Below, in pieces: positions 1 to 32,337 of a DNA stretch of 32,393 nucleotides (position 1 is the stretch's first letter; each line of letters begins with the position of its first letter). A program made the translations under genes and the position numbers. Source of the stretch: a bacterium (GTDB taxonomy: Bacteria; Bacillota; Clostridia; Lachnospirales; Lachnospiraceae); contig JAUNGR010000018.1 in NCBI GenBank assembly GCA_030524485.1, positions 1 through 32,393 of the forward strand, read 5' to 3'. The notes under the pieces were generated by a model. That model ran no database searches and was not told the DNA's origin. It worked only from the letters and a program-made list of their open reading frames with translations.

Positions 1-80
1 GTATGCAAGATTAAGAAAGGAGATAGCACTCCTCCCACCGCCTAAAGGCAATGGGTTTCCGTGCTAAAAATTTTTATGAA
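1..80 (+). promoter_or_regulatory. Structured leader repeat, copy 1, in front of fabF
   Basis: This is one of two nearly identical leaders in the window; the other is inverted at 32259-32337 in front of nagB. They differ by one substitution (position 9) and one T in a T-run. A Shine-Dalgarno-like AAAGGAG lies at 16-22, far from the fabF ATG at 76. Between them is a nested hairpin: TAGCAC 24-29 with GTGCTA 61-66, CCCA 34-37 with TGGG 52-55, GCC 40-42 with GGC 47-49, loop TAAA. In an alternative fold AGGAG (18-22) pairs with CTCCT (29-33), hiding the ribosome site, and its loop can still pair with 62-66 as a pseudoknot. That second topology resembles the crcB fluoride riboswitch. There is no ribosome site next to the ATG. 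A regulatory role is inferred. Confidence 0.7.
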
Positions 81-1311
81 AAGAAGAGTAGTAGTGACCG
101 GTATGGGGGCAGTTACTCCTGTTGGAAATGACGTTGAGACATTTTGGAAGGCATTGAAGGAAAAAAAGGTTGGAATTGGACCTATCACAAAGTTTGATAC
201 CACAGAATATAAGGCGAAATTGGCAGCGGAATTGAAGGATTTTGATGCAAAGCAGTACATGGACGCGAAGGCAGCCAGAAGAATGGAGCCTTTCTCCCAG
301 TATGCGGTGGCAGCAACCAAGATGGCACTGGAGGATGCAGGAATTGATATGGAGAAGGAAGATGCCTTCCGTGTCGGCGTGAGCATTGGTTCCGGAATCG
401 GAAGCCTGCAGGCAGTGGAGAGGGAGCATAAGAAACTCTTGGAAAAGGGACCTTCCCGTGTGAATCCTCTCTTGGTTCCGTTAATGATTAGCAACATGGC
501 AGCTGGAAATGTAGCCATTCAGTTTGGCTTAAAGGGCAAGTGTATCAATGTGGTGACTGCCTGTGCGACAGGAACCCATTCCATCGGTGAGGCCTTCCGT
601 TCGATTCAGTACGGAGAGGCGGATGTGATGGCAGCAGGTGGAACGGAGGCCAGCATCACTCCGATTGGGGTTGCCGGATTTACTGCACTGACCGCATTGT
701 CCGAGAGCACAGACCCACTGCGGGCATCCATTCCGTTTGACAAGGATAGAAATGGTTTTGTGATGGGAGAGGGTGCCGGTGTGGTGATTTTGGAGTCCTT
801 GGAACACGCTCAGGCAAGAAATGCCCATATTTATGCAGAGGTTGTTGGATATGGTGCGACCTGCGACGCTTATCACATCACTTCTCCGGCGGAGGACGGC
901 AGCGGTGCGGCAAGAGCCATGACGGATGCCATCAAGGATGCAGGCATTGAACCAGAACAGATTGACTATGTGAATGCACATGGTACCGGCACACATCACA
1001 ACGATTTGTTTGAGACCAAAGCCATCAAATTGGCTTTGGGAGAGCACGCATATCAAGTGAAAATCAATTCCACAAAGTCCATGATAGGACATTTGCTCGG
1101 AGCAGCAGGCGGTGTGGAGTTTATCACCTGTGTGAAGTCCATTGAGGATGGATTTGTGCACGCAACGGCAGGTCTGGAGCAGGAAGATGAGGGCTGTGAT
1201 TTGAATTATATGAAGGGCGAGGGAGTGGAGATGGAAGTGAATTATGCCATCAGCAACTCTCTGGGCTTTGGCGGTCACAATGGTAGCCTTGTGGTAAAAA
1301 AGTTTGTCTGA
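76..1311 (+). CDS. fabF: Beta-ketoacyl-ACP synthase II (FabF)
   Basis: FabF condenses malonyl-ACP with the growing acyl-ACP in cytosolic type II fatty-acid synthesis. The 411-residue product has the usual family length. It shows the thiolase-fold triad: Cys163 in TACATGTHSIGEA, His302 in NAHGTGTHHND and His339 in STKSMIGHLLGAAGG, with the conserved Lys334. The start at ATG 76 (MKRRVVVTGMG) matches the family. An in-frame GTG at 61 would add five residues but lies inside the hairpin of the leader. No Shine-Dalgarno sequence is adjacent to the ATG, so initiation probably depends on the leader structure. It is the first gene visible in the fab-acc operon; fabH, fabD, fabG and acpP are not in the window and may lie upstream. 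Confidence 0.97.
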   Translation: MKRRVVVTGMGAVTPVGNDVETFWKALKEKKVGIGPITKFDTTEYKAKLAAELKDFDAKQYMDAKAARRMEPFSQYAVAATKMALEDAGIDMEKEDAFRVGVSIGSGIGSLQAVEREHKKLLEKGPSRVNPLLVPLMISNMAAGNVAIQFGLKGKCINVVTACATGTHSIGEAFRSIQYGEADVMAAGGTEASITPIGVAGFTALTALSESTDPLRASIPFDKDRNGFVMGEGAGVVILESLEHAQARNAHIYAEVVGYGATCDAYHITSPAEDGSGAARAMTDAIKDAGIEPEQIDYVNAHGTGTHHNDLFETKAIKLALGEHAYQVKINSTKSMIGHLLGAAGGVEFITCVKSIEDGFVHATAGLEQEDEGCDLNYMKGEGVEMEVNYAISNSLGFGGHNGSLVVKKFV

Positions 1312-1367
1312 TACCAGCGTCAAACAGAGGAAAAGCGTTTGGCAGCAGGAAAGGAATGAGGATAAGA

Positions 1368-1859
1368 ATGGATATTCAAACAGTTTTGACATTGATTCAA
1401 GCAGTTTCGGACTCCAATCTGACGGGATTTGAGTTGGAGGAGGGAAATCTTAGACTGACCTTAAAGAGAGAGAATGGAACAGTTGCTGCAAGCTCTGTTT
1501 TGAACTCTGGCACAGAAAAGAGAGAGAAAAAGAATGAGGTTGTGAAGGAGGAGCAGCCGCAGGCAGCACCGAGTGTGGAGCAGGCGGAAGCACCCAAGGC
1601 CTCAGAAACGGTTTCGATTGCTTCGGATAAGGTTGTGGTTTCCCCTCTGGTTGGAATCTTTTACTCCTCCCCCTCTCCGGATGCTCCGCCTTTTGTGAAG
1701 GTAGGAGATACGGTAAAGAAGGGACAGGTAATTGGCATCATTGAAGCGATGAAGCTGATGAATGAGATTGAGAGTGAATACGACGGCGTGGTGGAAGCGA
1801 TTTTGGTGGAGAACGAGGATGTGGTGGAGTACGGACAGCCACTGTTTCGGATTCACTAA
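1368..1859 (+). CDS. accB: Biotin carboxyl carrier protein of acetyl-CoA carboxylase
   Basis: AccB carries the biotin that shuttles carboxyl groups from AccC to the carboxyltransferase in malonyl-CoA synthesis. The N-terminal half (residues 1-80) is the usual helical start plus a flexible Ala/Pro/Glu linker. The C-terminal half (about 85-163) is the biotinyl domain, with the biotin-acceptor Lys129 in the EAMKLMNEI motif. ATG 1368 ([10 protein letters not shown]) is preferred over ATG 1356 because the latter has its AAAGGA directly abutting the codon, while 1368 has GAGG about seven bases upstream. It lies 56 nt after fabF and 26 nt before fabZ in the same operon. Confidence 0.95.
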
Positions 1860-1885
1860 AAAAGAGCAGAAAGGACGGAAGAGCT

Positions 1886-2308
1886 ATGTTAGGAATTAAG
1901 GAAATTCAGGAGATTATCCCGCATCGTCATCCTTTTTTGCTGGTGGACTGTATTGAGGAGCTGGAACCAGGGGTGCGTGCGGTAGGTTATAAGTCGGTGA
2001 GTTACAACGAGCCTTTTTTTGCGGGACATTTTCCGCAGGAGCCGGTGATGCCGGGGGTTTTGATTGTGGAAGCTCTGGCCCAGACGGGAGCGGTGGCCAT
2101 TCTTAGCTGTGAGGCGAACAAGGGAAAAATTGCTTATTTTGGTGCCATTAACAATGCAAAGTTCAAGAAAAAGGTGATTCCGGGAGACAGACTGCGTTTG
2201 GAATGTGAAATTATCAAACAGAAAGGCCCAGTTGGTGTGGGAAAAGCGACTGCAACGGTGGATGGAAAGGTTGCGGTCAGTGCGGAATTGACATTTATGA
2301 TTGGATAG
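1886..2308 (+). CDS. fabZ: 3-hydroxyacyl-ACP dehydratase FabZ
   Basis: FabZ removes water from 3-hydroxyacyl-ACP to give trans-2-enoyl-ACP. The 140-residue hot-dog-fold protein contains the family motif with catalytic His48 in [11 protein letters not shown] and Glu62 in VEALAQ. The start has a good ribosome site (AAAGGACGGAAG). It sits between accB and accC, the order standard for Clostridia and streptococci. No fabA/fabM-type isomerase is visible here, so the origin of any unsaturated fatty acids cannot be read from this window. Confidence 0.96.
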
Positions 2309-2320
2309 GAGAACGTGGCG

Positions 2321-3664
2321 ATGTTTCATAAAATACTGATTGCCAACAGAGGCGAGATTGCGGTACGGATCATCCGTGCCTGTAGGGAAATGGGAATCAA
2401 GACGGTTGCTGTGTACTCGGAGGCGGATAGGGAGGCTCTGCACACCTTACTGGCCGATGAGGCAATCTGTATCGGGCCGGCTTCTTCTTTGGAGAGTTAT
2501 CTGAACATGGAGAGAATCTTGAGTGCAACGGTTGCGATGAAGGCAGATGCCATTCATCCAGGCTTTGGTTTTCTCTCCGAAAATGCCAGATTTGCAGAAT
2601 TATGTCAAAAATGCCACATTGCCTTTATCGGGCCGTCTGCACAGATCATTCATAAGATGGGAAATAAGTCCGAGGCGAGAAAAACGATGATGGAGGCCAA
2701 TGTTCCTGTGGTTCCGGGAAGCCGTGAACCCGTGTATACGGTGGAAGAGGCCGAGAAGATGGCCGAGGAGATTGGCTATCCGGTGATGATTAAGGCATCT
2801 TCTGGCGGAGGTGGCAAGGGAATGCGTATTTCTCGAAGCAGCGAGGACTTTGCGGCCAATTTCCAAAATGCACAGATGGAGTCTATCAATGGATTTTCGG
2901 ACGATACCATGTACATTGAGAAGTATATTGAGCAACCTCGCCACATTGAATTTCAGATTTTAGCGGACAAATACGGAAATGTGCTGCATCTGGGAGAGCG
3001 TGACTGCTCCATTCAGAGACGGCATCAGAAGGTGATGGAGGAGTCTCCATCCGCTGCGATTTCGCCAGAGTTGCGTAAGCAGATGGGAGAGATGGCCGTT
3101 CGGGCTGCAAAAGCCGTGAATTATGAGAATGCTGGAACCATCGAATTTTTGTTGGACAAAAATAAACAGTTTTATTTTATGGAAATGAACACCCGAATTC
3201 AGGTGGAGCATCCAGTCACAGAGATGGTGACAGGCATTGATTTGATTCAAGAGCAGATTCGGATTGCGGCGGGGGAGAAACTTTCTCTGCGTCAGGAGGA
3301 CATTCACATCAATGGCCATGCGATTGAGTGTAGAATCAATGCCGAGAATCCTTCCAAGCACTTTATGCCCTGTCCAGGACTTATCACCAATGTACATGTG
3401 CCAGGAGGAAATGGCGTGCGAATTGATACGGCAATCTATAACAACTACCGAGTGCCGCCCAACTACGATTCGATGCTTTTAAAGTTGATTGTGCATGGCA
3501 ATGACAGAGCGAGTGCGATTGAGAAGATGAGAAGTGCTTTGGGAGAGCTGATTATTGAGGGCATAGAGACCAATCTGGACTTTGAGTATGAGATCATCAA
3601 CAACGAAGATTTCCAGAAGGGAAACATTGATACGGATTTCATTCCCAAGCATTTTAATGTATAA
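2321..3664 (+). CDS. accC: Acetyl-CoA carboxylase, biotin carboxylase subunit
   Basis: AccC carboxylates the biotin on AccB using ATP and bicarbonate. The 447-residue product has the standard length and all domains: N-terminal preATP-grasp (KILIANRGEIAVRIIRA), ATP-grasp with the glycine-rich loop KASSGGGGKGMR near residue 160, the metal and bicarbonate site around FMEMNTRIQVEHPVTE, and the C-terminal biotin-carboxylase domain. Start ATG 2321 (MFHKILIANRG) is chosen because AGGAG at 2307-2311 is well spaced from it, whereas the in-frame GTG at 2315 is too close. Only 12 nt separate it from fabZ, suggesting translational coupling. Confidence 0.97.
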   Translation: MFHKILIANRGEIAVRIIRACREMGIKTVAVYSEADREALHTLLADEAICIGPASSLESYLNMERILSATVAMKADAIHPGFGFLSENARFAELCQKCHIAFIGPSAQIIHKMGNKSEARKTMMEANVPVVPGSREPVYTVEEAEKMAEEIGYPVMIKASSGGGGKGMRISRSSEDFAANFQNAQMESINGFSDDTMYIEKYIEQPRHIEFQILADKYGNVLHLGERDCSIQRRHQKVMEESPSAAISPELRKQMGEMAVRAAKAVNYENAGTIEFLLDKNKQFYFMEMNTRIQVEHPVTEMVTGIDLIQEQIRIAAGEKLSLRQEDIHINGHAIECRINAENPSKHFMPCPGLITNVHVPGGNGVRIDTAIYNNYRVPPNYDSMLLKLIVHGNDRASAIEKMRSALGELIIEGIETNLDFEYEIINNEDFQKGNIDTDFIPKHFNV

Positions 3665-3774
3665 AACAGAGGAAGGCTTGCGAGAGCACTTTGTGTGGCC
3701 GAATCTGGCATCATAAATCATAATAAAAAAAGAGACTGCGAATAAGAAAGAGCATTGGAAGGGAGAATCGGACT

Positions 3775-5556
3775 ATGCTTCGGGATATGTTTAAGAAAAC
3801 GTACACAAGATTAGACAGCAAATATAGAAGTGATAGAAGTGCGGATGGGCAGGAAGAGCCGAATATTCCGGAAGGCTTGTGGCGTAAGTGCAACAAGTGT
3901 GGCCGTCCGATTTATACGGAAGATGTCATAGAAAATTTTTATGTTTGTCCAAAGTGCAAGGGATATTTTCGGGTTCATGCCTACCGCCGTTTTGAGATGA
4001 TTGCAGATACGGATTCTTTTGAGGAGTGGGATAAGGAGATGGACTTCGTCAATCCCTTAGACTTTGCAGGATATGAGAAGAAGTTTCAGGCAGTCAAGGA
4101 AAAAACGAACTTGAACGAAGCCATTGTGACAGGCAAGGTTTTGATTGAGGGAGAGGCAGCGGTGATGGGAGTCTGTGATTCCCGCTTCTTTATGAGTAGT
4201 ATGGGCTATAACGTCGGGGAGAAGATTACCAGAGCGGTGGAGAGAGCGACCGAGGAGAGGCTTCCGGTGATTCTATACTGCTGTTCGGGTGGTGCTAGAA
4301 TGCAGGAAGGTCTGGTTTCTCTGATGCAGATGGCAAAAACTTCAGCTGCTCTAAAGAGGCATCAGGATGCAGGGCTTTTGTATGTGACGGTGCTGACTGA
4401 CCCGACAACAGGCGGTGTGACAGCGAGTTTTGCGATGTTGGGAGACTTGATTCTGGCAGAACCTGGAGCCTTGATTGGTTTTGCAGGGCCGAGAGTCATT
4501 GAGCAGACCATAGGACAAAAGCTGCCAGAAGGCTTCCAGAGAGCGGAGTTTTTGCTGGAGCATGGTTTTGTGGACTGCATTGTGGAACGGAAGGAGCAGA
4601 AGGCTTTTCTGGCTAAGATTTTAAGGATGCACAGGGCAAGCACAAAGGCACAGGGCATACGGAATCTGTTTGAGAGCGAGATGGCAAAAGCAGCCGAGCT
4701 GCAGATGCAGGAAGAAAATCCAAAGGAGAGCAAACAGGGGGAGGAAAGCAAGGAGAGCAAGCGTGACGGTGGCAAAAAGACGGCATGGGATACGGTGCTG
4801 CTTTCCAGAAAGGCAAGTCGTCCGCCAGCCTCTTCTTATATTCAAGCTTTGTTTACGGATTTTATTGAGTGTCACGGAGACCGTCTCTATCGGGATGACG
4901 GAGCGATTGTGGGAGGCATTGCCCTCTTTCATGGCTGTCCAGTCACGGTGATTGCTCAGGAAAAGGGAAAAAATACGAAGGATAATATTAAGTGCAATTT
5001 TGGAATGCCGTCGCCGGAAGGGTATCGAAAGGCTTTACGTCTGATGAAGCAGGCGGAAAAATTTAATAGACCGGTCATTTGCTTGGTGGACACCCCCGGA
5101 GCTTTCTGTGGCATGGAAGCGGAGGAGAGAGGACAGGGCGAGGCGATAGCCCGCAACCTGTTTGAGATGTCCTCTTTGAAGGTTCCGGTGTTGACTCTTG
5201 TGATTGGAGAGGGCGGCAGCGGAGGTGCATTGGCTTTGGCTGTTTCCAATGAGGTTTGGATGATGGAAAATGCCGTGTACTCAATTTTATCGCCGGAGGG
5301 CTTTGCCAGCATTTTATGGAAGGACAGCAAGAAGGCAGCGGAGGCCGCTAGGGTGATGAAAATGACCTCAAGAGACCTTCTGGAAATGGGATTGATTGAG
5401 AAAGTGATTGCAGAGCCAGAACCGGTGGAGATGAAAAATCTGCCGGAGATCGCAAAAGAGATAGAGAACTCGGTGCAGGAATTTTTGGAGAAGTACGGCA
5501 GAATGTCTGAGGCGGAAGTGGTGGAGCACAGATATCGCAGATTTCGGAGGATGTGA
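3775..5556 (+). CDS. accDA: Acetyl-CoA carboxylase carboxyltransferase, fused beta-alpha subunits (AccD-AccA)
   Basis: This single 593-residue polypeptide carries both carboxyltransferase halves, which are separate proteins in most bacteria. Residues 1 to about 285 are AccD, with the four-cysteine zinc ribbon (Cys39, Cys42, Cys58, Cys61) and the [10 protein letters not shown] motif. Residues about 290-340 are a charged Glu/Lys/Ser linker ([20 protein letters not shown]). Residues about 341-593 are AccA, with [35 protein letters not shown] and [11 protein letters not shown]. The AccA part lacks most of the N-terminal helical region of free AccA. A good GGAAGGGAG site precedes ATG 3775. The reading frame is continuous across the junction, so this is a real fusion. 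Its stop overlaps the start of the FabK-like gene. Confidence 0.95.
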
Positions 5557-6662
5557 TGAGTGGTTTGATTCTGGGGGCAGAATTTCCTGTCATTCAGGGA
5601 GGGATGGGAGTGGGTATAAGCCTCTCCTCTCTGGCAGGACATGTGGCAAAAGAGGGGGGAGTCGGAATCATTTCGACAGCCCAGATCGGATTTCGGGAGC
5701 CAGATTTTTATGAACAGCCCCTGAAGGCCAATCTGCGTGCCATTGGGAAAGAGTTGGCAAGAGCAAGAGAGCTTGCAAACGGCGGCATGTTGGGGTTTAA
5801 TATTATGGTTGCGACCAAGAATTACAAGGAATATGTTAAGGAAGCGGTACGTTGTGGTACAGATGTCATCATCTCCGGTGCAGGGCTGCCGGTGAGTCTG
5901 CCGGAGTATGTGAGAGAGGCTGAGACTGAGATGCAGCTAGTAGAAAGACATACCTTGCTGGCTCCGATTGTGTCCTCGGAGAAATCAGCCTCCGTGATTT
6001 GCAAGTTGTGGGACAGAAAATATAAGACAGTTCCAGATTTTGTGGTGATAGAGGGACCTTTGGCAGGAGGTCATCTGGGTTTTTCTTTGGAGACGCTGCA
6101 TGAGCTTGGAGCAGATACCGACAATGTGCCTAAGAGTTTTCAGGCAGACATGTATGAGAGAGAAATCCGTAACATTTGTACACTAGTGAGAGATTATGCA
6201 AAGAAGTATCAAAAGGAGATACCAGTCATTTTGGCAGGTGGCATCTACGACAGAGCGGACGTGCTGCACGCACGCACATTAGGAGTGGATGGGGTGCAGG
6301 TGGCCACTCGTTTTGTGACCACAGAGGAGTGTGATGCACCTCAGAGCTATAAAGATGCTTATATTCGAGCAAAAAAAGAGGACATTGTTATTACCAAGAG
6401 TCCAGTGGGAATGCCAGGAAGAGCGATTCGGAATGCATTTTTGGAGCAGGTACAGAGAGAGGGAAGAATCGCCATAGAGCATTGCTATCAGTGTCTGGAG
6501 AAGTGTGACAGGGCTTCGATTCCGTATTGCATCACCAAGGCCTTGGTGAATGCCGCAAATGGGGATTTGGAACATGCACTGTTGTTTTGCGGAAGCAATG
6601 CCTACCGTGCAGAGAAAATGGAGACGGTGGCAGAGGTTATGGCGGATTTGAGAGTAAACTGA
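5556..6662 (+). CDS. fabK: FabK-like enoyl-ACP reductase / nitronate monooxygenase-family flavoprotein
   Basis: The product belongs to the FMN-dependent nitronate monooxygenase/FabK TIM-barrel family: N-terminal FPVIQGGMGVGIS, GFNIMVATKNYKEYV, then GPLAGGHLGFS and ILAGGIYDRADV with GVDGVQVATRFVTTEECDA. In a fatty-acid operon that shows no fabI, enoyl-ACP reduction is the likely job, but nitronate oxidation cannot be excluded. At 368 residues it is longer than pneumococcal FabK (about 324). The extra C-terminus has a cysteine cluster (HCYQCLEKCDRASIPYC) that could bind metal. The ATG at 5556 shares its A with the accDA stop (TGATG), with GGAGG at 5546-5550, so the two genes are translationally coupled. 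An in-frame GTG at 5553 is less likely. Confidence 0.83.
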   Translation: MSGLILGAEFPVIQGGMGVGISLSSLAGHVAKEGGVGIISTAQIGFREPDFYEQPLKANLRAIGKELARARELANGGMLGFNIMVATKNYKEYVKEAVRCGTDVIISGAGLPVSLPEYVREAETEMQLVERHTLLAPIVSSEKSASVICKLWDRKYKTVPDFVVIEGPLAGGHLGFSLETLHELGADTDNVPKSFQADMYEREIRNICTLVRDYAKKYQKEIPVILAGGIYDRADVLHARTLGVDGVQVATRFVTTEECDAPQSYKDAYIRAKKEDIVITKSPVGMPGRAIRNAFLEQVQREGRIAIEHCYQCLEKCDRASIPYCITKALVNAANGDLEHALLFCGSNAYRAEKMETVAEVMADLRVN

Positions 6663-6730
6663 CTTCATTTTGAACATACAATATTATATTAACAGTGACT
6701 TGTTTTAGATGATAGCCGTAAGAAAAAAGG

Positions 6731-6770
6731 AATAAGCGAAGACCAAAATCAGGAATTCGCTTATTTTTTT
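6731..6770 (+). terminator. Intrinsic terminator of the fab-acc operon
   Basis: A 10-bp perfect stem AATAAGCGAA / TTCGCTTATT with a 15-nt loop is followed by a run of T. It lies 70 nt after the fabK-like stop and immediately before the marR promoter, and so closes the fatty-acid operon. Confidence 0.9.
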
Positions 6771-6771
6771 G

Positions 6772-6802
6772 TTGACAAAGAATAGTTCTATATAGTACTA
6801 TT
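6772..6802 (+). promoter_or_regulatory. marR-MATE promoter with MarR operator palindrome
   Basis: The -35 box TTGACA is at 6772-6777 and a -10 candidate TACTAT at 6796-6801 (spacing 18). Positions 6781-6802 (AATAGTTCTA then TATAGTACTATT) form an imperfect palindrome matching its reverse complement at 20 of 22 positions. It fills the spacer and covers the -10 box, where a repressor would block RNA polymerase. The obvious candidate is the MarR protein encoded 33 nt downstream, which implies autoregulation together with the efflux gene. The repressor assignment is inferred. Confidence 0.75.
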
Positions 6803-6834
6803 CGATATAGGACAATAAAAAAGGAGGGGAAGGT

Positions 6835-7305: not shown

Positions 7306-7398
7306 AAATGAGAGCCTGTGCGAGAGCACGAAGGAACAGAATGGGTAAAGCAAGTAAAGTAAGAAAAGAACAACAAGGAGAAGGATAAGGAGAAAACG

Positions 7399-8772: not shown

Positions 8773-8817
8773 TGGGTTCGGCTTGGAGAAGTTAGGACGG
8801 AATGATATGACATGTTT

Positions 8818-21652: not shown

Positions 21653-21667
21653 CTGGGGAAGGGGAGA

Positions 21668-23599: not shown

Positions 23600-23627
23600 A
23601 TAGGTTTGAGCAGGGAGGTGGAACAGA

Positions 23628-25265: not shown

Positions 25266-25315
25266 GGAAGGAGGAAGGCAGGAGCTTACCTGCGAGAAAC
25301 GAAAGGATTTTGCTT

Positions 25316-26371
25316 ATGAAAGTTTATTTCCGGAGAGAGATACAGCACAATTATCTAGTGATTGAGCCGGACAATAAGGCAGATGAGAGCTATGAAATAA
25401 AAATGTTGACTCATAATACAATAGAGGGATTGTTAAAATTTCGTGTGAAGCGATTGGATGGAGAAGCACAATTTTTTTATGACATCACTTCCAAACAGCC
25501 ATTGAGCAGAATCTGGGAGAGTCGAGAAATCACAGCGGAGGAGATTCGCATCCTTATCAGCACTTTGGCAGCTGTTTTAAATAGAATAGAGGTATTTTTG
25601 TTTCTGCCGGAACGGCTTTTGATTCAGGCAGAGTATATTTATGTGGAACCGGAATCGCTGCATTTCTATTTTTGTCTGCTTCCCAACAGAGAAGCGGATT
25701 TTTTCAAAGAATTGCAGGAGTTATTATACTTTCTATTGAAGAAGGTGAAGCATCAGAATCAGGAGAGTGTGGTGTTAGCCTATGGTCTTTATCAAGAAAC
25801 GCAAAAAGAAAACTACGGAATGGGAAATCTGTTGCGTTTTTTAGGTACGCATACCGAGAAAGAAGAAAGCTGTGAAGAAGGACACGAAAGAAGAAAGAAT
25901 ATGGGGGAAGAGGATACAATAAGAAAAAATAAGGAAATAAATAGCACACAAAGAGACTTTATAATAAAAAATACGGCAATGAAAAAGGATGTCGTGAAAG
26001 ATACTACGGTAAAAAGTAAGGCAGAAGGAAGCTGTGTGGAAGAGAAAAGAACAGCAGAGGAAGGGAGGAAAGAGAGGACAAAAAAGAATCAGAATCAACC
26101 ACTTCTTTATCTTTGTATGCTCTTGTGGATAGGACTTCTTTTGGGAACGGGGATTTTGTATTGGCAGGGGGGGCTGGGAGTTTGTTTGGAGATGGAAGGA
26201 AGCAGTGGCTGGAAGCTTTGTGATAATAATAGGATTGAGCCTGTTGGTGGGATATTGGGGGCTGCAGGAAGAAAAGAAAACGGAAAGGGAAAAGGAGGAG
26301 TTCTGCCCTGTAGAGGGGAAGGAGGAGAGCTTACAAGAGAGCAGGCACGAAGCGAGGGAGGCAGAAAATAG
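25316..26371 (+). CDS. DUF6382-like N-terminal part of a frameshifted FHA protein
   Basis: The first about 185 residues (MKVYFRREIQHNYLVIEP, LTHNTIEGLLKFRVKRLDG, FFYDITSKQPLSRIW) match the DUF6382 domain found before FHA domains in clostridial tad loci. A Lys/Glu-rich linker and a membrane helix (PLLYLCMLLWIGLLLGTGIL) follow. After the G7 tract at 26167-26173 the frame turns into Gly/Arg-rich sequence without family features and stops at 26371, while the expected second helix and FHA domain continue in another frame. The true product is probably 25316-26768 joined by a one-base shift. ATG 25316 has AAAGGA nine bases upstream. Confidence 0.72.
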   Translation: MKVYFRREIQHNYLVIEPDNKADESYEIKMLTHNTIEGLLKFRVKRLDGEAQFFYDITSKQPLSRIWESREITAEEIRILISTLAAVLNRIEVFLFLPERLLIQAEYIYVEPESLHFYFCLLPNREADFFKELQELLYFLLKKVKHQNQESVVLAYGLYQETQKENYGMGNLLRFLGTHTEKEESCEEGHERRKNMGEEDTIRKNKEINSTQRDFIIKNTAMKKDVVKDTTVKSKAEGSCVEEKRTAEEGRKERTKKNQNQPLLYLCMLLWIGLLLGTGILYWQGGLGVCLEMEGSSGWKLCDNNRIEPVGGILGAAGRKENGKGKGGVLPCRGEGGELTREQARSEGGRK

Positions 26372-26768
26372 AAGATGGCAGGTCTTTTTTGAGGAGGAAG
26401 AGAAAGAATACCATGAAAAACAGAAGGAGAAAAAAGAAATGCAGACCACATTGCTTTCTGTGGGGATGGCTGCACAAGAGAAGCACTATCTTGTCAGTCT
26501 TCAGGAAGGATATGAGGATATTTTGTTAAGTTATTATCCATTTTTGATTGGAAAAGCGGAATATATGACAGATTATGCTCTTTTGAGAGATTCTGTCAGC
26601 AGACTGCATGTCAAAATAGAAAGAACGGAGCAGGGATTTCAGATTACCGATTTGAATTCCACAAATGGGACATGGGTGGGGGAGCATTTATTGGAGGCCA
26701 ATGAGACCTTTCCTCTTAAGGAAAACGACAAAATACGTCTGGCGGATTTGACTTTTTGGTTTAAATAA
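26205..26768 (+). CDS. FHA-domain C-terminal part of the frameshifted protein
   Basis: This frame supplies the missing half: a membrane helix (AGSFVIIIGLSLLVGYWGL), a charged coiled-coil-like linker, and an FHA domain (about the last 95 residues) with FLIGKAEYMTDYALL, the phosphothreonine-binding SRLH and STNGTWVGEHLL motifs and a final strand IRLADLTFWF. FHA domains read phospho-threonine marks. The frame is open back to 26133 and the 26205 codon is only an internal GTG without a ribosome site, so independent translation is unlikely. Together with the preceding gene it forms one DUF6382-TM-TM-FHA protein. Confidence 0.75.
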   Translation: MAGSFVIIIGLSLLVGYWGLQEEKKTEREKEEFCPVEGKEESLQESRHEAREAENRRWQVFFEEEEKEYHEKQKEKKEMQTTLLSVGMAAQEKHYLVSLQEGYEDILLSYYPFLIGKAEYMTDYALLRDSVSRLHVKIERTEQGFQITDLNSTNGTWVGEHLLEANETFPLKENDKIRLADLTFWFK

Positions 26769-26772
26769 TGCC

Positions 26773-26800
26773 TTAACAAATTTTGATACATGTGTTAAAA
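26773..26800 (+). promoter_or_regulatory. Weak promoter-like dyad before the rhomboid gene
   Basis: TTAACA (26773-26778) and TTAAAA (26795-26800) are spaced by 16 nt, and TTAACA/TGTTAA form a dyad. This could be a promoter with operator for the rhomboid-HIT-sigma genes, or chance in AT-rich sequence. The rest of the 26769-26952 gap shows nothing else. Confidence 0.35.
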
Positions 26801-26952
26801 TGGGGGAGAAGCCAAAAGACCTCCAGAAAGAGAACTTACACTGGATTTTAGGATCTTTCGACCTTGGTATCCATAAAATAAAATATTTCAAAAGGGCGGA
26901 TGGGCAGTAAGAACCCGATTTCCGATTGATGAAAGAAAGGCAGTACATTGCA

Positions 26953-27543
26953 ATGGGAGAAAAAAACAGCCGAAGCTTACCATACATTAATATTGCTCTT
27001 GTCGCAGTGAATGTCCTTGTGTTTCTCTGGACAGAATGGGGAGGTTCTTCTGAGGACAGTATTTGGATGCTGCAGCATGGAGCCATGTTTGCACCGCTTG
27101 TCATAGAGAAAAAGGAATATTATCGTCTGTTTACGGCGGTATTTCTTCATTTCGGTGTCAACCATTTGGCGAATAATATGTTAATTTTATGCATTATGGG
27201 GGAACACCTAGAGCGTGCTCTGGGAAAGCTAAAATACGTATTGTTTTATGTTCTTTGCGGAGTTGCTTCCAATGTTGTTTCCATGATGATACATTTGAAT
27301 CAGAGAAGTTTGACGGTTTCTGCCGGAGCTTCCGGAGCGATTTTTGGGGTAATTGGAGGCTTGTTCTGGGCGGTTATCCGAAATCATGGTCGCTTGGAAA
27401 ACTTAAATAGTAGGCAGTTGGCAATGGTGATCGTGTTCGCCTTATATTTTGGTTTCACCAGTACAGGGGTAGATAATGTTGCCCATATATCCGGACTTGT
27501 GATAGGATTCCTGCTGTCTATGCTGCTGTATCGAAAAAAATAA
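26953..27543 (+). CDS. Rhomboid-family intramembrane serine protease
   Basis: The 196-residue protein has the six-helix rhomboid core. The catalytic serine is in AGASGAIFGVIGG and the catalytic histidine in NVAHISGLVIGFLL; the oxyanion-side NHLANNMLILCIMG motif and the L1-loop region are also present. Rhomboids cut membrane proteins within or near the bilayer. ATG 26953 has AAAGG about 12 bases upstream; an earlier ATG (26929) and a TTG (26926) in frame lack a ribosome site. It starts a short run of plus-strand genes with HIT and sigma-factor genes; substrates are unknown. Confidence 0.92.
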   Translation: MGEKNSRSLPYINIALVAVNVLVFLWTEWGGSSEDSIWMLQHGAMFAPLVIEKKEYYRLFTAVFLHFGVNHLANNMLILCIMGEHLERALGKLKYVLFYVLCGVASNVVSMMIHLNQRSLTVSAGASGAIFGVIGGLFWAVIRNHGRLENLNSRQLAMVIVFALYFGFTSTGVDNVAHISGLVIGFLLSMLLYRKK

Positions 27544-27614
27544 TGACCTTTTACCAGCATCAAGGAACAAGTAGGTACCAAAAGGTAGGATAGATAGGAA
27601 AAGGAGAGAAGATT

Positions 27615-28031
27615 ATGAGAGATAACACATGTATTTTTTGTAAAATTGCAAATGGAGAGATTCCATCTGCAACGGTATATGAAGATGAAACCTTTCGAGC
27701 TATTTTGGACTTAAATCCTGCATCTAAGGGACATACCATTATTTTGCCAAAGGATCATTATAAAGATGTATGCGATTTGGGAGAGACCGCTGCACAGAAA
27801 ATTTTGCCTACGGCAGCAAGAATCGGAAAGGCCATGAAAAAGTCCTTGGGATGTACGGGATTCAATTTGGTGCAGAACAATGGAGTCAGTGCAGGTCAGA
27901 CCGTGTTTCATTTTCATATGCATGTGATACCCAGATATGAGGGGGGTCCCGCTATGGTATCTTGGGAACAACAGGCATCCAATCCAGAGGAACTTCAGAA
28001 AACTGCAGAACAGATTAGACAAGAATTATAG
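27615..28031 (+). CDS. HIT-family nucleotide hydrolase (Hit/HinT-like)
   Basis: The 138-residue histidine-triad protein has the HxHxH signature in FHFHMHVIPRY, the N-terminal CIFCKIANGEIPSATVYED with the zinc-type C-x2-C, and the GHTIILPKDHY block. Members hydrolyse nucleoside phosphoramidates or dinucleoside polyphosphates in the cytosol. ATG 27615 follows AAAAGGAGAG. The sigma-factor gene begins 30 nt after its stop, so co-transcription is likely. The precise substrate cannot be read from sequence. Confidence 0.94.
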   Translation: MRDNTCIFCKIANGEIPSATVYEDETFRAILDLNPASKGHTIILPKDHYKDVCDLGETAAQKILPTAARIGKAMKKSLGCTGFNLVQNNGVSAGQTVFHFHMHVIPRYEGGPAMVSWEQQASNPEELQKTAEQIRQEL

Positions 28032-28060
28032 GGATTATGGATAATAAGGGAGGAGCTGCT

Positions 28061-28591
28061 ATGCAGCAGGCTGAAGAAAACCAGTTGCTGCTCTCCTTGT
28101 ATGATACATATCAAAAGGATTTGAAAAAGTTCATAAGGTACAAAGGTGTAGCAAGAGATGATTTAGATGATGTGATACAAGAGATTTTCTTGGCATATTG
28201 CAGAAATTATAGTCTGACTCTCCCAGATGATGAAAAGAAAAAGATTCTGTTGACGATTGCAAAGACGAAAACAATTGATTATTACAGAATGAAAAAAGAT
28301 GTGGATATCTTGAACATTGATTCTCTGTATGGTGAGATGGAAATGTTATCCAAATATCATATGGGAGATGGTTTGGAGAAGGTCATCCATGATGAGACTT
28401 GCCGTGAAATTCGGGAGGCGATTTACAAGCTAAAACCAGAGTGGAGAGATGTCATCATGGAATATGTAGTGCACGGAAAGAGTACAAAAGAAGTTTGTGA
28501 AAAACTGGGTATCAAAGAAAGTTCACTTCGCACGAGATTGTTTCGAGCAAAACAGTATCTGCGTGCGAAGTATAAATTCAGTTTTAAGTAG
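28061..28591 (+). CDS. ECF-type RNA polymerase sigma factor
   Basis: The 176-residue protein has region 2 ([20 protein letters not shown] and YCRNYS) and region 4 ([18 protein letters not shown] with [18 protein letters not shown], a helix-turn-helix), the compact layout of extracytoplasmic-function sigma factors. ATG 28061 is the start because GGGAGGAG lies six bases upstream; ATG 28037 in the same frame has no such site. Its 3' end overlaps the end of convergent murG by 8 nt. No anti-sigma gene follows directly; a candidate is the membrane protein at 30001, beyond murG. The target promoters are unknown. Confidence 0.88.
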
Positions 28592-29651
28592 CAGAACAAC
28601 ACTCTTCAATCAATGAAATAATGGTGTCAACGGCATTCTTTTGATGACTTTGAGACATGGTTTGGATAAAAACATCTCTTTGTTTATAAGTATCGAGGAT
28701 GGTTTGATAGAGATTCTCATCAAGCTCATTTTCTTCCAACACAGCACTGAAACCTTGCTTTTTGAAGGATGCAGCATTTAAAATTTGGTCTCCTCGACTT
28801 GCCTCTGCTGAGAGAGGGATTAAGATATTGGGTTTGTGCAGTGCAAGCAATTCACAGATGGAATTTGCACCGGCTCTGGAAATCACAAGGTCAGCAGCAG
28901 CAAAAAGGTGTTTCAAGGGGCTGTCAACATATTCATATTGAACATAACCCTGAAGTCCGATTAATGTTTCATCTATATGTCCTTTTCCGCAGATATGAAT
29001 CACTTGAAAGTTGGTGAGAAGCTGAGGTAGAATACGGCGCACGGCTGTATTGACTGTAACAGACCCAAGACTTCCGCCAATTACAAGGAGGACAGGTTTA
29101 TTTGCAGATAAATGGGTATACTTTAAACCGGATAGACGATCTCCTTTCAAAAGCTCCTCACGGATGGGAGAACCTGTGAGAACGGCCTTTTCCTTGGGAA
29201 GGTATTGTAAGGTTTCCGGAAAATTACAGCAAACTTTGCGAGCGGAAGGGATACAGATTTTGTTTGCCAGTCCGGGAGTCATATCTGACTCATGGATGAT
29301 AGTAGGAATTTTATAGCGTTTTGCCGCCAGAACAACTGGAACAGAGACAAAACCGCCTTTTGAAAAGACAACGTCGGGTTTGTATTTTTTAATCAGGCGT
29401 TTGGCTTCTGAAAATCCTTTTAATACCCGAAATGGGTCCGAAAAGTTTTTCAAGTCAAAGTAACGGCGCAACTTGCCGGAGGAGATACCATCATAGGGAA
29501 CTCCGGTGGCTTCAATGAGTTTGCGTTCTATGCCATTGTAAGAGCCAATATAGCGAATGTCATAGCCCAGTTCTCTCAGAGAGGGAATCAGAGCAAGGTT
29601 CGGGGTGACGTGACCGGCGGTACCACCGCCAGTTAGAATGATTTTTTTCAT
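28584..29651 (-). CDS. murG: UDP-GlcNAc:undecaprenyl-PP-MurNAc-pentapeptide transferase (MurG)
   Basis: MurG adds N-acetylglucosamine to lipid I to make lipid II on the inner face of the membrane. The 355-residue protein has the standard length and the family motifs: [14 protein letters not shown] near the N-terminus, [41 protein letters not shown] and [23 protein letters not shown] in the C-terminal UDP-binding domain. ATG 29651 (MKKIILTGG) is chosen; AAAGGA lies about 11 bases upstream. It stands alone here, away from the usual mur/fts cluster, convergent with the sigma-factor gene. Confidence 0.97.
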
Positions 29652-29761
29652 AAAAAGTTGTATCCTTTCTGTTGTCATAGGCTCCACCATCGTCTTTTAG
29701 ACAGGGGAGAGTCTTGTGATAGTAGGTGGCAAAAGATGTTTTCTTACAATAGTATATTGCA

Positions 29762-29791
29762 TTGCGTTCGCATAAAGAAAAAGAGTATAAA
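29762..29791 (+). promoter_or_regulatory. Promoter before the structured intergenic element
   Basis: TTGCGT (29762-29767) and TATAAA (29786-29791) are spaced by 18 nt. Transcription would begin near 29798, just ahead of the paired element at 29813-29898. Confidence 0.5.
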
Positions 29792-29797
29792 ATAAGT

Positions 29798-29900
29798 ACG
29801 ACAAAGGGTGTGGTCAACCACCCTATGAAAGTCTGCCTTATGGTGAAAGCACACCTAGGCAGTTATAAACTCAGGGCATTTGGTCATGGGTAGTTGACTC
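29798..29900 (+). ncRNA. Structured RNA-like element of unknown class
   Basis: GTCAACCACCC (29813-29823) pairs with GGGTAGTTGAC (29888-29898) at 10 of 11 positions, the exception being a C/A mismatch. Enclosed is a second stem: CTGCC 29833-29837 with GGCAG 29858-29862, then GGTG 29842-29845 with CACC 29852-29855. The remaining 25 nt, including CTCAGGGCATTTGG, are unpaired and could carry a binding site. It lies between murG and the anti-sigma-like gene, behind a promoter. It could be a cis-regulatory leader, a small RNA, or the end of an IS200/IS605-type element; no transposase gene is present. I could not assign a known class. Confidence 0.45.
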
Positions 29901-30000
29901 GCGTTGCCTTCCTATTTGTTTATATAAATCTTATAGTAAACCATCACAAGAAAAAGTCAACCCTCAACGGAGAGCTTGTTTGTGATTTTCGAGGTATATC

Positions 30001-30822
30001 ATGAAAAAAATGGAGAAAGACAGAGAAACCGATGCGGTAGAGCAGAAGATAAAAGAAGCTTTTGGCTTTGACGAGGAACAGCTTTTGCGAGAATTTCATA
30101 TGGCCGAAAAAGCAATCTCTGATGAGGAACTTCCTGAGACACCGGCGGATGATTTCAAACGCCTTCTTGCACGGATTGATGCAGATAAACATGCAAATCA
30201 TGGTAGATATCCAGAAAATATAGAAAATTTATATAGCAATCATAAGAAAAAGAGGATGATAGTGAGAATGAGAAGAGCAACAGTGTTGGTAGCTGCGTTA
30301 GCGATTGCTACATTGGGAATAAGTATTGTGGGTGTAGGAGGGAAAACGTATTATTTTAGAGAGAAAGCGAGAGATAGTATACGAAATGACATTGTGTTTA
30401 ATAACGATGAGGTACTAGAGAAGGTATCAGATGAAGAAAAAGCTTATAAGGAGATAGAGAAGGCATTTCAAGTAGATGCCTTAAAATTAGGGGATCGTCC
30501 AGAAGATTTGGAATTTAGCAAGTTAGATATTGGAACTTATCAGTCCATCTTGAGTTTTACGACATCTGAAGAACAGTTTTTATATGTATACCAAACGAAT
30601 GCCAAAACAGGCCATTCTTATAATGCAATGTACGATGGGAAAGAAATTGGAACTTGTAAAAATGAATGGTTAAACCAAGAATTTCCTATTTTACTTTATG
30701 AAAGTGATACTGGTTGGGAGTATACAGTGAAATTTACCCATGAAAATAATTATTTTATTGTGGAAGCAAACAATCTATCTCTAGACGATTTTATGTTGAT
30801 TGTATCAGATTTGCATTTTTAG
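30001..30822 (+). CDS. Single-pass membrane protein, anti-sigma-like with DUF4367-like exterior
   Basis: The 273-residue protein has a charged cytosolic N-terminus (1-92, rich in Glu and Lys, with EEQLLREFHMAEKAI), one membrane helix (93-114, ATVLVAALAIATLGISIVGVGG) and an outer domain. The final part (GWEYTVKFTHENNYFIVEAN then LSLDDFMLIVSDLHF) resembles DUF4367 domains of clostridial membrane-bound anti-sigma or sensor proteins. No zinc-binding HxxxCxxC motif is seen. It could restrain the ECF sigma factor at 28061, although murG and the structured element separate them. ATG 30001 has GAGG ten bases upstream. It is followed after 65 nt by the secreted protein gene. Confidence 0.62.
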   Translation: MKKMEKDRETDAVEQKIKEAFGFDEEQLLREFHMAEKAISDEELPETPADDFKRLLARIDADKHANHGRYPENIENLYSNHKKKRMIVRMRRATVLVAALAIATLGISIVGVGGKTYYFREKARDSIRNDIVFNNDEVLEKVSDEEKAYKEIEKAFQVDALKLGDRPEDLEFSKLDIGTYQSILSFTTSEEQFLYVYQTNAKTGHSYNAMYDGKEIGTCKNEWLNQEFPILLYESDTGWEYTVKFTHENNYFIVEANNLSLDDFMLIVSDLHF

Positions 30823-30887
30823 TAATAGCACTATTTTCGTTTCGTTAATCATTATGGAAGGGTTAGATATTAGATGAAAGGAAGGCT

Positions 30888-31403
30888 ATGAAGAAAAAAA
30901 TTGCAGTTGTTACGTTGATTTTGAGTTTGATGCTTACCTTTGTTGCTTTTGCCAGTTTGGAAGAGGGAGATTGGGAGCAATATACAGATATCAATTATGA
31001 GTCAGAGTTGCTACCAAGTGGGGTAAATAGTTCTTATGGAAGTAGCAATAAAGGAGCCAGAGGAGATTACATTGCAGTTGCCACAGTGGGACTTGGAAAT
31101 GAGGGAAATGGAAAAATGGCAGTTATTTCAAGTACAAGTTCTCATACCTATTGTGACAGAATTCGTATGAAAATTTACTTGGATAAGTACAATGAGAGTA
31201 AAGATACATGGGAAAACATCAAAACATTTACGTATGATGTAAAATCCTCAGATGTAGGTGGTAACTTACATTTACTGAATGAAGAAGAAATAGTTACTGT
31301 GCAGAAAGGGTATTATTATCGTGTCAGAGGAGTCCATACTGTTTACCAGAACGGAAAATCAGAAAACTTCTCGACCTATTCTAAGGGTGTCTTAGCAGAG
31401 TAA
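30888..31403 (+). CDS. Secreted DUF6147-like protein
   Basis: The 171-residue protein has a clear signal peptide (MKKKIAVVTLILSLMLTFVA, cleavage likely after AFA near residue 22). The mature part includes ARGDYIAVATVGL, the GNGKMAVISSTSSHTYCDRI motif, MKIYLDKYNESKDTWENIKT and KGYYYRVRGVHTVYQNGKSE, which match the DUF6147 family of small secreted clostridial proteins. Function is unknown. A good AAAGGAAGG site precedes ATG 30888. It probably shares a transcript with the anti-sigma-like gene and ends at the terminator at 31461. Codon use in both genes is more AT-rich than in the fab and tad regions, hinting at a different history. Confidence 0.78.
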   Translation: MKKKIAVVTLILSLMLTFVAFASLEEGDWEQYTDINYESELLPSGVNSSYGSSNKGARGDYIAVATVGLGNEGNGKMAVISSTSSHTYCDRIRMKIYLDKYNESKDTWENIKTFTYDVKSSDVGGNLHLLNEEEIVTVQKGYYYRVRGVHTVYQNGKSENFSTYSKGVLAE

Positions 31404-31460
31404 TTGAAACAAAACCGGAACAGAACATACTATAACATACTATTATATTTAACCTTTCAA

Positions 31461-31520
31461 AAAAGGGATTGTCGCTCTGCGACTGTTTAAGCAGTCGTTT
31501 TGCAACAATCCCTTCCTTTT
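31461..31520. terminator. Bidirectional terminator between the DUF6147-like gene and nagB
   Basis: The outer stem GGGATTGT (31465-31472) with ACAATCCC (31505-31512) encloses an inner stem CGACTG / CAGTCG. It has an A-run on the left and T-rich sequence on the right, so it serves both convergent genes. Confidence 0.88.
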
Positions 31521-31531
31521 ATCTACGTTTT

Positions 31532-32263
31532 TTACTTAGGCATCTTGGATAAGGCAGCCTCATCCGCAACAATCGTCACATCTGGGTGCATCTGCAGAAT
31601 GGATGCTGGAACCTTCGGTGTGATAGGACCGCAGATGGTTTTTGCGAGAATGTCGGCTTTTCCTTCTCCGTTTACAATCAAGAGGATTTTCTTTGCACTC
31701 ATAATGGTACCGATGCCCATGGTGTAGGCCTGTCTGGGAACCATGCTAATATCCTCAAAGAAGCGTTTGTTTGCTTCAATGGTACTTTCCTGTAAATCGA
31801 CACACTGGGTACCTTTGACAAAGTGGTCGGATGGCTCATTGAAGCCGATGTGTCCGTTGTGTCCAAGACCGAGAAGCTGTAAATCGACACCGCCAAGGTC
31901 TTTTACAACCTTATCGTAGCGGCTACATTCTTTCTCAGCGTCTGGCTCCGTTCCGTTTGGAATGTTGGTATTTTCCAGATGAATATTAACAGATTGGAAA
32001 AGGTGCTGATTCATAAAATAATAGTAACTCTGGTCGTTGTCACGAGGCAAACCTCTGTATTCGTCCAGATTAGCTGTCTTTACCTCAGAAAAATCCAAGT
32101 CACCAGCTTGATACATTTCAATCAGTCTTTTGTAAGTGCCAATGGGAGTGGAACCCGTAGCCAAACCCAGTACACAATCTGGTTTAGTGATAATTTGTGC
32201 AGCAATGATATTGGCTGCCTGACGACTCATATGGTCGTAGTCCTTTGCGTGAATAATCTTCAT
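31532..32263 (-). CDS. nagB: Glucosamine-6-phosphate deaminase (NagB)
   Basis: NagB converts glucosamine 6-phosphate to fructose 6-phosphate and ammonia, linking amino-sugar use and cell-wall precursor supply to glycolysis. The 243-residue protein shows the family motifs GLATGSTPIGTYKRLIEMY, ANLDEYRGLPRDNDQSYYYF, LLGLGHNGHIGFNEP with the catalytic His/Glu, and the substrate-binding MGIGTIMSAKKILLIVNGEG. ATG 32263 (MKIIHAKDY) matches the family start. Upstream is the second copy of the structured leader, with no adjacent ribosome site. In this copy an ATG within the hairpin (32287) is in frame and would add eight residues; in the fabF copy the equivalent ATG is out of frame. nagA is not in the window. 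Confidence 0.96.
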   Translation of the reverse strand: MKIIHAKDYDHMSRQAANIIAAQIITKPDCVLGLATGSTPIGTYKRLIEMYQAGDLDFSEVKTANLDEYRGLPRDNDQSYYYFMNQHLFQSVNIHLENTNIPNGTEPDAEKECSRYDKVVKDLGGVDLQLLGLGHNGHIGFNEPSDHFVKGTQCVDLQESTIEANKRFFEDISMVPRQAYTMGIGTIMSAKKILLIVNGEGKADILAKTICGPITPKVPASILQMHPDVTIVADEAALSKMPK

Positions 32264-32337
32264 AAAATTTTTAGCACGGAAACCCATTGCCTTTAGGCGG
32301 TGGGAGGAGTGCTATCTCCTTTCTTAATATTGCATAC
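32259..32337 (-). promoter_or_regulatory. Structured leader repeat, copy 2, in front of nagB
   Basis: This is the inverted partner of the leader at 1-80, nearly identical through the start codon and diverging immediately after ATGAA. The Shine-Dalgarno-like AAAGGAG is at 32322-32316, the outer stem is 32314-32309 with 32277-32272, and the ATG is at 32263-32261. The spacer before the ATG has one T fewer than the fabF copy. Both copies start with GTATGC. Further upstream (32338-32393) the octamer AACGTATG occurs twice, 52 nt apart; no convincing promoter is seen there. Confidence 0.7.

What the first reader, a model, noticed from the sequence alone, without database searches (positions are those of the whole stretch)
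1..32337. Two near-identical ~79-nt leaders in inverted orientation precede fabF and nagB
Positions 1-80 and the reverse complement of 32259-32337 differ by only one substitution and one T. Identity runs from GTATGC through the start codon and ends just inside the coding region. The two downstream genes are unrelated in sequence and pathway (fatty-acid elongation; amino-sugar deamination), so common gene ancestry does not explain it. Both enzymes feed envelope building blocks. Possible meanings are a dispersed regulatory leader defining an envelope regulon, a mobile 5' UTR cassette, or a recombination site: recombination between the copies would invert the segment and exchange upstream sequences of fabF and nagB. 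The window beginning inside one copy is also what an assembly break at a dispersed repeat would look like.
Basis: partly seen in the sequence, partly recalled or inferred. Interest (0 to 1): 0.8.

Follow-up and report, generated by a model that had tools for sequence, protein, structure and literature searches.

The report
Transposon ends parked at start codons
The two matching leaders are the end of a small dispersed transposon that sits exactly between genes' own ribosome-binding sites and their start codons and seems to bring a replacement ribosome-binding site with it, so that the gene it interrupts can still be translated.

Summary
In detail: window 1-80 and the reverse complement of 32259-32337 match except for one substitution and one T. 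They are not a regulon leader but the left end of an IS605/TnpB-type non-autonomous element (416 bp in its complete C54 copy). The genome holds 13 strong copies, 9 near contig ends, so the window begins and ends in one. Full-length relatives (1.8-2 kb) encode Y1 TnpA and TnpB. The fixed flank is TTCAT, reverse complement of ATGAA, so copies end directly before an ATGAA. Of 32 complete elements, 16 lie by rule at a native start codon, the gene's own Shine-Dalgarno stranded on the far side (13 of 18 MITEs, 2 of 11 full-length IS, 1 of 3 others); random ATGAA sites give 122 of 1808. In 17 of 17 aligned MITEs the left end carries an outward Shine-Dalgarno: beside the start codon in 15, before a hairpin in 2, the window type. 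There the predicted hairpin would shorten 53 nt to about 10, as in T4 gene 25. Translation from this site is inferred, not shown. A new variant of a known kind: a transposon end that may double as a portable ribosome-binding site.

The parts
1..75 (-). Left end of the IS605/TnpB-type MITE (element on the minus strand; its outer end is base 75). The rest of this copy lies beyond the contig start.
   Evidence: same sequence as the left end of the complete 416-bp element in contig C54.
16..22 (+). Outward Shine-Dalgarno AAAGGAG in the element's left end, reading toward fabF
   Evidence: Direct reading. A like motif stands before the hairpin in L105, L126, L203, L213 and the garR-like remnant in C13.
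24..66 (+). Left-end hairpin (outer stem TAGCAC/GTGCTA, inner CCCA/TGGG and GCC/GGC)
   Evidence: Folding; hairpin conserved in element alignment A1.
76..80 (+). ATGAA = reverse complement of the element's fixed flank TTCAT (candidate TAM); 76-78 is also the fabF start codon
   Evidence: (80 of 81 pattern sites are followed by ATGAA).
76..1311 (+). fabF (3-oxoacyl-ACP synthase II), host gene whose start codon abuts the element
31532..32263 (-). nagB (glucosamine-6-phosphate deaminase), host gene whose start codon abuts the element
32259..32263 (-). ATGAA/TTCAT candidate TAM of the second copy, overlapping the nagB start codon
32264..32393 (+). Left end and beginning of the body of the second MITE copy (element on the plus strand, outer end at 32264); runs off the contig
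   Evidence: 135-nt query 98% identical to C54; 32264-32393 matches element positions 2-131.
32272..32314 (-). Left-end hairpin of the nagB copy
   Evidence: MFE -17.7 kcal/mol with the Shine-Dalgarno open.
32316..32322 (-). Outward Shine-Dalgarno AAAGGAG toward nagB
   Evidence: Direct reading.

Best explanation
The leaders are the left ends of two copies of a small non-autonomous transposon of the IS200/IS605 (Y1 TnpA + TnpB) type. SHOWN by sequence: the element has sub-terminal hairpins at both ends; its left end is joined to TTCAT (80 of 81 pattern sites); its right end finishes ...GTAGTTGAC or close to it and is joined to variable sequence; full-length relatives encode Y1 TnpA and TnpB. 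Read on the other strand TTCAT is ATGAA, so a copy that inserts at a gene starting ATGAA lands exactly between that gene's Shine-Dalgarno and its start codon. SHOWN by rule on joined flanks: this is where MITEs of this lineage mostly lie, with the native Shine-Dalgarno left on the far side. SHOWN as sequence: the left end carries an outward Shine-Dalgarno, either about 5-9 nt from the ATG (common form) or upstream of the hairpin (window form). INFERRED: the host gene is translated from this element-borne ribosome-binding site; in the window form the hairpin bridges the gap, reducing 53 nt (fabF) or 52 nt (nagB) to about 10 or 9 nt, as in the split ribosome-binding site of phage T4 gene 25. INFERRED: purifying selection keeps copies where the gene survives, so start-codon insertions accumulate. 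The inverted arrangement in the window follows from assembly stopping at two repeat copies.
For: Copies: 13 strong in the own assembly, 9 within 135 nt of a contig end. Complete 416-bp element in C54 with both flanks. Relatives: 37 of 397 genomes searched (own included) match the element, many only in part. Pfam of relatives: Y1_Tnp in 2 of 2 proteins tested, TnpB domains (Cas12f1-like_TNB, OrfB_IS605) in 1 of 1. A hairpin-only pattern (no Shine-Dalgarno, no ATGAA in it) gave 81 sites in the 80 loci handed out of at least 113 stretches: 80 are followed by ATGAA, exception L143. Outward Shine-Dalgarno by rule in the linker in 71 of 80 scored, before the hairpin in 5 (convincing by eye in L105 and L126), none in 4. 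Empty sites: 16 of 32 complete elements have an ORF of at least 60 aa starting at the ATG plus a native Shine-Dalgarno in the joined flank, versus 122 of 1808 random ATGAA, p = 9e-11; MITEs 13 of 18, p = 7e-12. NCBI annotation starts BPR_RS17485 on Butyrivibrio plasmid pCY360 exactly at this ATG. fabF and nagB orthologues displayed start with ordinary Shine-Dalgarnos. The C13 copy, before a reductase gene, matches the element over only 73 nt, Shine-Dalgarno included. Folding of 7 window-type leaders: a hairpin with GGAG open is the MFE in 3 and within 1.3 kcal/mol of it in 4. T4 gene 25 precedent, 27 to 11 nt (PMC3014915, passages).
Against: No expression data. Full-length IS show no significant start-codon excess (2 of 11, p = 0.17 versus random), so the target rule alone does not produce it, and the split by size was drawn after seeing the table. 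In the wide left-end sample the excess of open frames is modest (32 of 79 versus 509 of 1808, p = 0.02). Four of 12 readable copies in the own genome are not at a start codon by my reading. The linker Shine-Dalgarno could be conserved for TnpA binding or cleavage. Related sequences are not independent, and L108/L230 look like one ancestral insertion counted twice. No TnpB was found in the own, incomplete assembly, and its one Y1 transposase lacks these ends in the 5 kb around it. Four of 80 scored elements have no recognisable Shine-Dalgarno (one of them, L148, ends at the hairpin). In 4 of 7 leaders the MFE pairs all or part of GGAG, and a fold of window 1-110 pairs it with CUCC and is no more stable than shuffles (z -0.55).
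Confidence: 0.8

Rival explanations
1. Plain transposon insertions whose position at start codons is a by-product: TTCAT happens to contain the reverse complement of ATG, insertions inside genes are purged, and the Shine-Dalgarno-like linker is only part of the TnpA recognition sequence.
For: Non-disruptive ATGAA sites (by a rough ORF caller) are already 122 start-like of 381, and full-length IS (2 of 11) fit that baseline (p = 0.51). The linker is nearly identical across most elements.
Against: MITEs exceed even that baseline (13 of 18 versus 122 of 381, p = 0.001; grouping by size was made after the fact). By reading of the alignment the Shine-Dalgarno is present in 17 of 17 MITEs, in two different places, before and after the hairpin. 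The decayed C13 copy keeps the Shine-Dalgarno exactly while the hairpin sequence drifts. The second family in this genome, with another flank (ATAAA), has no Shine-Dalgarno in the 3 linkers scored, of 7 loci given to the script.
Confidence: 0.3
2. A dispersed regulatory leader (riboswitch-like or protein-binding) defining an envelope or other regulon.
For: Near-identity of the leaders and their position at start codons.
Against: Unrelated downstream genes, one copy inside malQ and two before no open frame, no leader at the orthologous fabF/nagB displayed, no Rfam match in the window at gathering scores, complete elements with transposon ends.
Confidence: 0.03
3. A recombination or inversion site that swaps the upstream regions of fabF and nagB.
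For: Two inverted copies 32 kb apart could recombine in principle.
Against: At least 13 copies exist; the layout follows from assembly ending at repeats, and contig L149 shows it too. I did not search for a site-specific recombinase, and no reads were available.
Confidence: 0.03

Closest known systems
IS200/IS605 family insertion sequences (ISDra2, IS608)
   Same: Y1 TnpA and TnpB in the full-length relatives, sub-terminal hairpins at both ends, insertion next to a fixed pentanucleotide at the left end, simple joins without target duplication. The right end finishes TTGAC (that ISDra2 uses the same right cleavage site is recalled, not checked). TTGAT as the ISDra2 TAM was seen in passages of PMC8612924.
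   Different: The fixed flank is TTCAT, so it can overlap start codons (ATGAA); the left end carries an outward Shine-Dalgarno; the complete C54 copy is internally deleted, and the window copies probably are.
PATEs and terminal-only IS605 derivatives of Haloquadratum (PMC3119063, passages)
   Same: Transposase-free IS605 derivatives with near-terminal palindromes, down to fused ends of about 50 bp (compare the 50-bp C42 copy).
   Different: The passages I saw describe no start-codon position and no ribosome-binding site.
Split ribosome-binding site of phage T4 genes 25 and 38 (PMC3014915, passages)
   Same: A hairpin between Shine-Dalgarno and AUG brings them to working distance.
   Different: There it is a phage gene's own leader, tested; here it is a transposon end repeated before unrelated genes, and bridging is predicted only.
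IS605 stem-loops linked to Borrelia lipoprotein genes (PMC2775950, abstract and passages)
   Same: IS605 end hairpins retained beside host genes after the element decays.
   Different: There at gene 3' ends; here between the native Shine-Dalgarno and the start codon.

Membership tests
IS200/IS605 (IS605 subgroup, divergent tnpA/tnpB) | Y1 (HUH) TnpA of the IS200 type | tested here: met
   In full-length relatives only: L098 and L091 ORFs hit PF01797. The window copies carry no gene in the part that is present.
IS200/IS605 (IS605 subgroup, divergent tnpA/tnpB) | TnpB gene | tested here: met
   In relatives: L098 ORF of 379 aa hits PF07282 and PF01385; ORFs of 379-393 aa at the same place in 10 of 10 full-length elements listed. 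Not found in the own assembly.
IS200/IS605 (IS605 subgroup, divergent tnpA/tnpB) | Sub-terminal hairpins at both ends | tested here: met
   Alignment A1 of 17 MITEs: predicted left and right hairpins, both with two-sided changes.
IS200/IS605 (IS605 subgroup, divergent tnpA/tnpB) | Insertion 3' of a fixed short target, no target duplication | tested here: met
   TTCAT at the left end in 80 of 81; joined flanks printed show no duplication by eye.
IS200/IS605 (IS605 subgroup, divergent tnpA/tnpB) | Single-strand transposition, TAM-dependent TnpB cleavage | not testable with these tools
   Biochemistry.
MITE/PATE (non-autonomous derivative) | Has both ends but no intact transposase | tested here: met
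   C54 copy of 416 bp and C42 copy of 50 bp. For the two window copies only one end is in hand.
IscB/HEARO element | HEARO RNA and RRXRR protein | tested here: not met
   no RF02033 or PF14239 match in the own genome, but neither search rang in its 14 control genomes; no HEARO match in 8 own-genome loci. Relatives carry TnpB instead.
Split (hairpin-bridged) ribosome-binding site | Mutations in the hairpin reduce translation | not testable with these tools
   Only structure prediction here.

The most novel reading that the evidence does not exclude
A MITE lineage in Lachnospiraceae and neighbours has evolved into a portable translation-initiation module. It reaches ATGAA start codons through its TTCAT flank, separates the gene from its native Shine-Dalgarno and imposes its own, in two architectures, one a hairpin-bridged split site. 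Decayed copies that keep only this part become permanent host 5' UTRs, so one mobile end spreads a common translation signal over unrelated genes.
Probability: 0.35. Interest if true: 0.78.

Novelty: new variant of a known kind. Interest (0 to 1): 0.6.

Why it matters
Transposons that bring promoters are familiar; one whose target motif overlaps the start codon and whose end restores the ribosome-binding site would be a clear solution to the problem of inserting into genes without killing them. It would also give a natural, repeated experiment on how a hairpin between Shine-Dalgarno and AUG affects translation, and it warns that near-identical 'leaders' before unrelated genes in draft genomes may be mobile-element ends at contig breaks.

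Tried and rejected
IscB/HEARO first guess: RF02033 and PF14239 searches of the own genome gave nothing (neither rang in its control genomes), and relatives encode TnpB. Rfam scan of the window at gathering scores: none; a laxer scan of 8 own-genome loci, the C54 element included, gave two riboswitches, a tRNA and one weak match, all outside the element. Regulon idea rejected because of one intragenic and two geneless copies and unrelated genes. The only Y1 transposase found in the own genome (C63) lacks these ends in the stretch examined. The idea that the conserved 5' part of the MITE RNA is unrelated to tnpB was dropped: short pieces match tnpB coding sequence in order, though each alone is a weak match (BLAST E 0.045 or worse). 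A broader control family (exact pattern for the ATAAA-type hairpin) was found only in the own genome (1 of 250), so the no-Shine-Dalgarno control rests on one lineage. Outward promoters were not scanned with a tool. Paper searches for start-codon-targeting IS605/TnpB elements, or for elements that provide a ribosome-binding site; I saw nothing of that kind in the listings; the library lacks most subscription journals. Judgement by eye: start-codon status of own-genome copies other than fabF and nagB. Pfam places profile starts near residue 1 for the glycerate kinase and the reductase; the sensor kinase and ABC protein are named but their N-termini untested; C167 and C176 have no Pfam match; that C47 lies inside a MATE gene is recall only, Pfam found nothing.
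Full report
WHAT IS THERE. Window 1-80 and the reverse complement of 32259-32337 are near-identical: one substitution (base 9) and one T fewer. The match ends at ATGAA, the first five bases of fabF and of nagB; both gene names and both start codons hold. On the right the match continues to the last base of the window. A search of the window's own assembly gives 27 matches: 13 strong copies and 14 weak ones that look like a second family of short elements. Nine of the 13 lie within 135 nt of a contig end. The window therefore starts and stops inside a dispersed repeat, and the inverted arrangement is what two repeat copies at the two ends of a contig look like. A contig of another organism, L149, shows the same layout.

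THE ELEMENT. One copy, in contig C54, is complete with both flanks: TTCAT, 416 bp, then variable sequence; its right end finishes ...GTGGGTAGTTGAC. A 50-bp copy in C42 is the two ends fused. Thirty-seven of 397 genomes searched, the own one included, carry matches, many only partial, and a hairpin-only pattern in GTDB genomes reported at least 113 stretches and handed out 80 loci with 81 matches. Longer relatives (1.77-2.05 kb) hold a tnpB-type ORF on one strand in 10 of 10 listed and, divergently, a tnpA-type ORF that ends about 80 nt from the left end and so reads toward the host gene: 134-150 aa in 6 of 10, shortened, absent or unclear in the other four. Pfam confirms Y1_Tnp for 2 of 2 and TnpB domains for 1 of 1 proteins tested. 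Seventeen MITEs of 416-449 bp align over their whole length; the predicted structure has 66 pairs, 23 with two-sided changes. Their inner part carries short pieces of tnpB coding sequence in order (one motif in 10 of 10 and the next in 6 of 10 full-length elements; each alone a weak match), which suggests one ancestral deletion derivative.

THE TARGET. In 80 of 81 pattern sites the left end is followed by ATGAA, that is TTCAT on the element's strand (the exception is L143; in L157 the script took an earlier ATGAA inside the linker). I joined the flanks of complete elements to see the empty site. Only 20 of the 81 pattern sites had a right end within reach; 17 complete elements and the fused C42 copy came from other loci. 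After removing repeats and dropping two with too short a flank (L133, L163), 32 sites remain. L108 and L230 look like one ancestral insertion, so 15 of 31 is the stricter count. One of the 16 is C54, the query itself. By size: MITEs (327-449 bp) 13 of 18, IS of 1.4 kb or more 2 of 11, others (690, 181 and 50 bp) 1 of 3; I drew this split after seeing the table. L125, a miss by rule at a contig end, looks by eye like a response-regulator start. MITEs exceed even the share of start codons among non-disruptive ATGAA (122 of 381 by a rough ORF caller; p = 0.001), full-length IS do not (p = 0.51). In the wide left-end sample, where the other flank is mostly unknown, 32 of 79 sites open an ORF of at least 60 aa against 509 of 1808 (p = 0.02).

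OWN GENOME AND NAMED CASES. Twelve of the 13 own copies have readable downstream sequence (C128 runs into Ns). I judge 8 of 12 to be at start codons: fabF and nagB by alignment; a sensor kinase, an ABC transporter, a glycerate kinase and a reductase with Pfam names; two unnamed ORFs of 132 and 80 aa by look only. The C143 copy interrupts malQ (the fragment after it matches positions 409-464 of 465 of Glyco_hydro_77). C41 and C42 precede no open frame. C47 opens a 131-aa frame without Pfam match that I take, from recall, for the inside of a MATE gene. Annotation not made by me agrees in one named case: BPR_RS17485 on Butyrivibrio pCY360 starts at the ATG beside the element, with a native Shine-Dalgarno at the far end. 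In relatives, 7 of 9 fabF and 4 of 4 nagB orthologues displayed start with ordinary Shine-Dalgarnos and no element.

THE OUTWARD RIBOSOME-BINDING SITE. Most left ends finish GAAAGGATTTTATTT or close to it before the ATGAA: a Shine-Dalgarno at good distance (about 5-9 nt). By rule it is in the linker in 71 of 80 scored sites; 5 more have a 4-mer before the hairpin (convincing by eye in L105 and L126; the L157 entry comes from the earlier ATGAA), and 4 have none, one of which (L148) has no sequence beyond the hairpin. In the 17 aligned MITEs, by reading, 15 have it in the linker and the two that lack it there (C54 and L203) have CTCCTTTC, its complement, on the other side of the hairpin. The window copies are of this second form: AAAGGAG, hairpin, AAAATTTTT or AAAATTTT, ATG. 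GGAG lies 53 nt (fabF) and 52 nt (nagB) from the ATG; with the hairpin formed about 10 and 9 nt remain. Folding of 7 window-type leaders gives a hairpin with GGAG open as the MFE in 3 and within 1.3 kcal/mol of it in 4; in L105 and L213 the MFE hides the Shine-Dalgarno, in the fabF copy and L203 part of it. Window 10-80 is more stable than shuffles (z -2.3), but window 1-110, which includes fabF codons, is not (z -0.55) and pairs GGAG with CUCC. So bridging is plausible, not established. The review PMC3014915 (passages) reports T4 genes 25 and 38, where such a structure reduces 27 to 11 and 22 to 5 nt and helps initiation.

FOSSILS. The copy before a reductase gene (C13) matches the element over only 73 nt, keeps AAGAAAGGAG exactly, and still folds into a hairpin although its sequence has drifted. 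The C14 copy matches over 83 nt. These look like ends retained as leaders, but two cases prove little.

LIMITS. No expression data; draft assembly of 195 contigs, 86% complete; relatives are not independent; gene starts of most sites are by rule or by eye. The negative control for the Shine-Dalgarno is one other family with ATAAA at the same place, 3 linkers scored of 7 loci given and the rest by eye. Literature was searched in open-access papers only; in those listings I saw no report of start-codon-overlapping IS605/TnpB targets with an element-borne ribosome-binding site.

VERDICT. Observation confirmed; regulon and inversion readings not supported; mobile-cassette and assembly-break readings supported and made specific. 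The element belongs with IS605-type MITEs; what seems new is the start-codon position and the outward ribosome-binding site.

Noticed in passing
L034:2647-3062 and 16 relatives (alignment A1): The 416-449-bp MITEs carry a conserved, covarying RNA (66 predicted pairs, 23 with two-sided changes) that fuses short pieces of tnpB coding sequence to the right-end guide-RNA region; probably a stand-alone omega RNA of the MITE.
   Followed up: partly
Own genome contigs C7, C14 (15730), C18, C38, C139, C140, C147 (loci L020-L024, L031, L033): A second family of short palindromic elements (GTGAACTACCCATCGCCTAAAGGCAATGGG..., flank ATAAA), with the same hairpin core but no Shine-Dalgarno seen; an exact pattern found it in none of 249 other genomes searched.
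   Followed up: partly
   Followed up: partly
L010 (own contig C167, last 53 nt): The left end is preceded by an inverted piece of the same MITE; either a real rearrangement or an assembly artefact at the contig end.
   Followed up: no
window 32263-32287 and 61-76: The hairpin itself holds an ATG in frame with nagB (ORF 251 aa) and a GTG in frame with fabF (ORF 416 aa), so automatic gene callers may start these genes inside the transposon end.
   Followed up: no
L149 (3336-bp contig): A contig bounded on both sides by left ends of a related element in inverted orientation, the same layout as the window.
   Followed up: no
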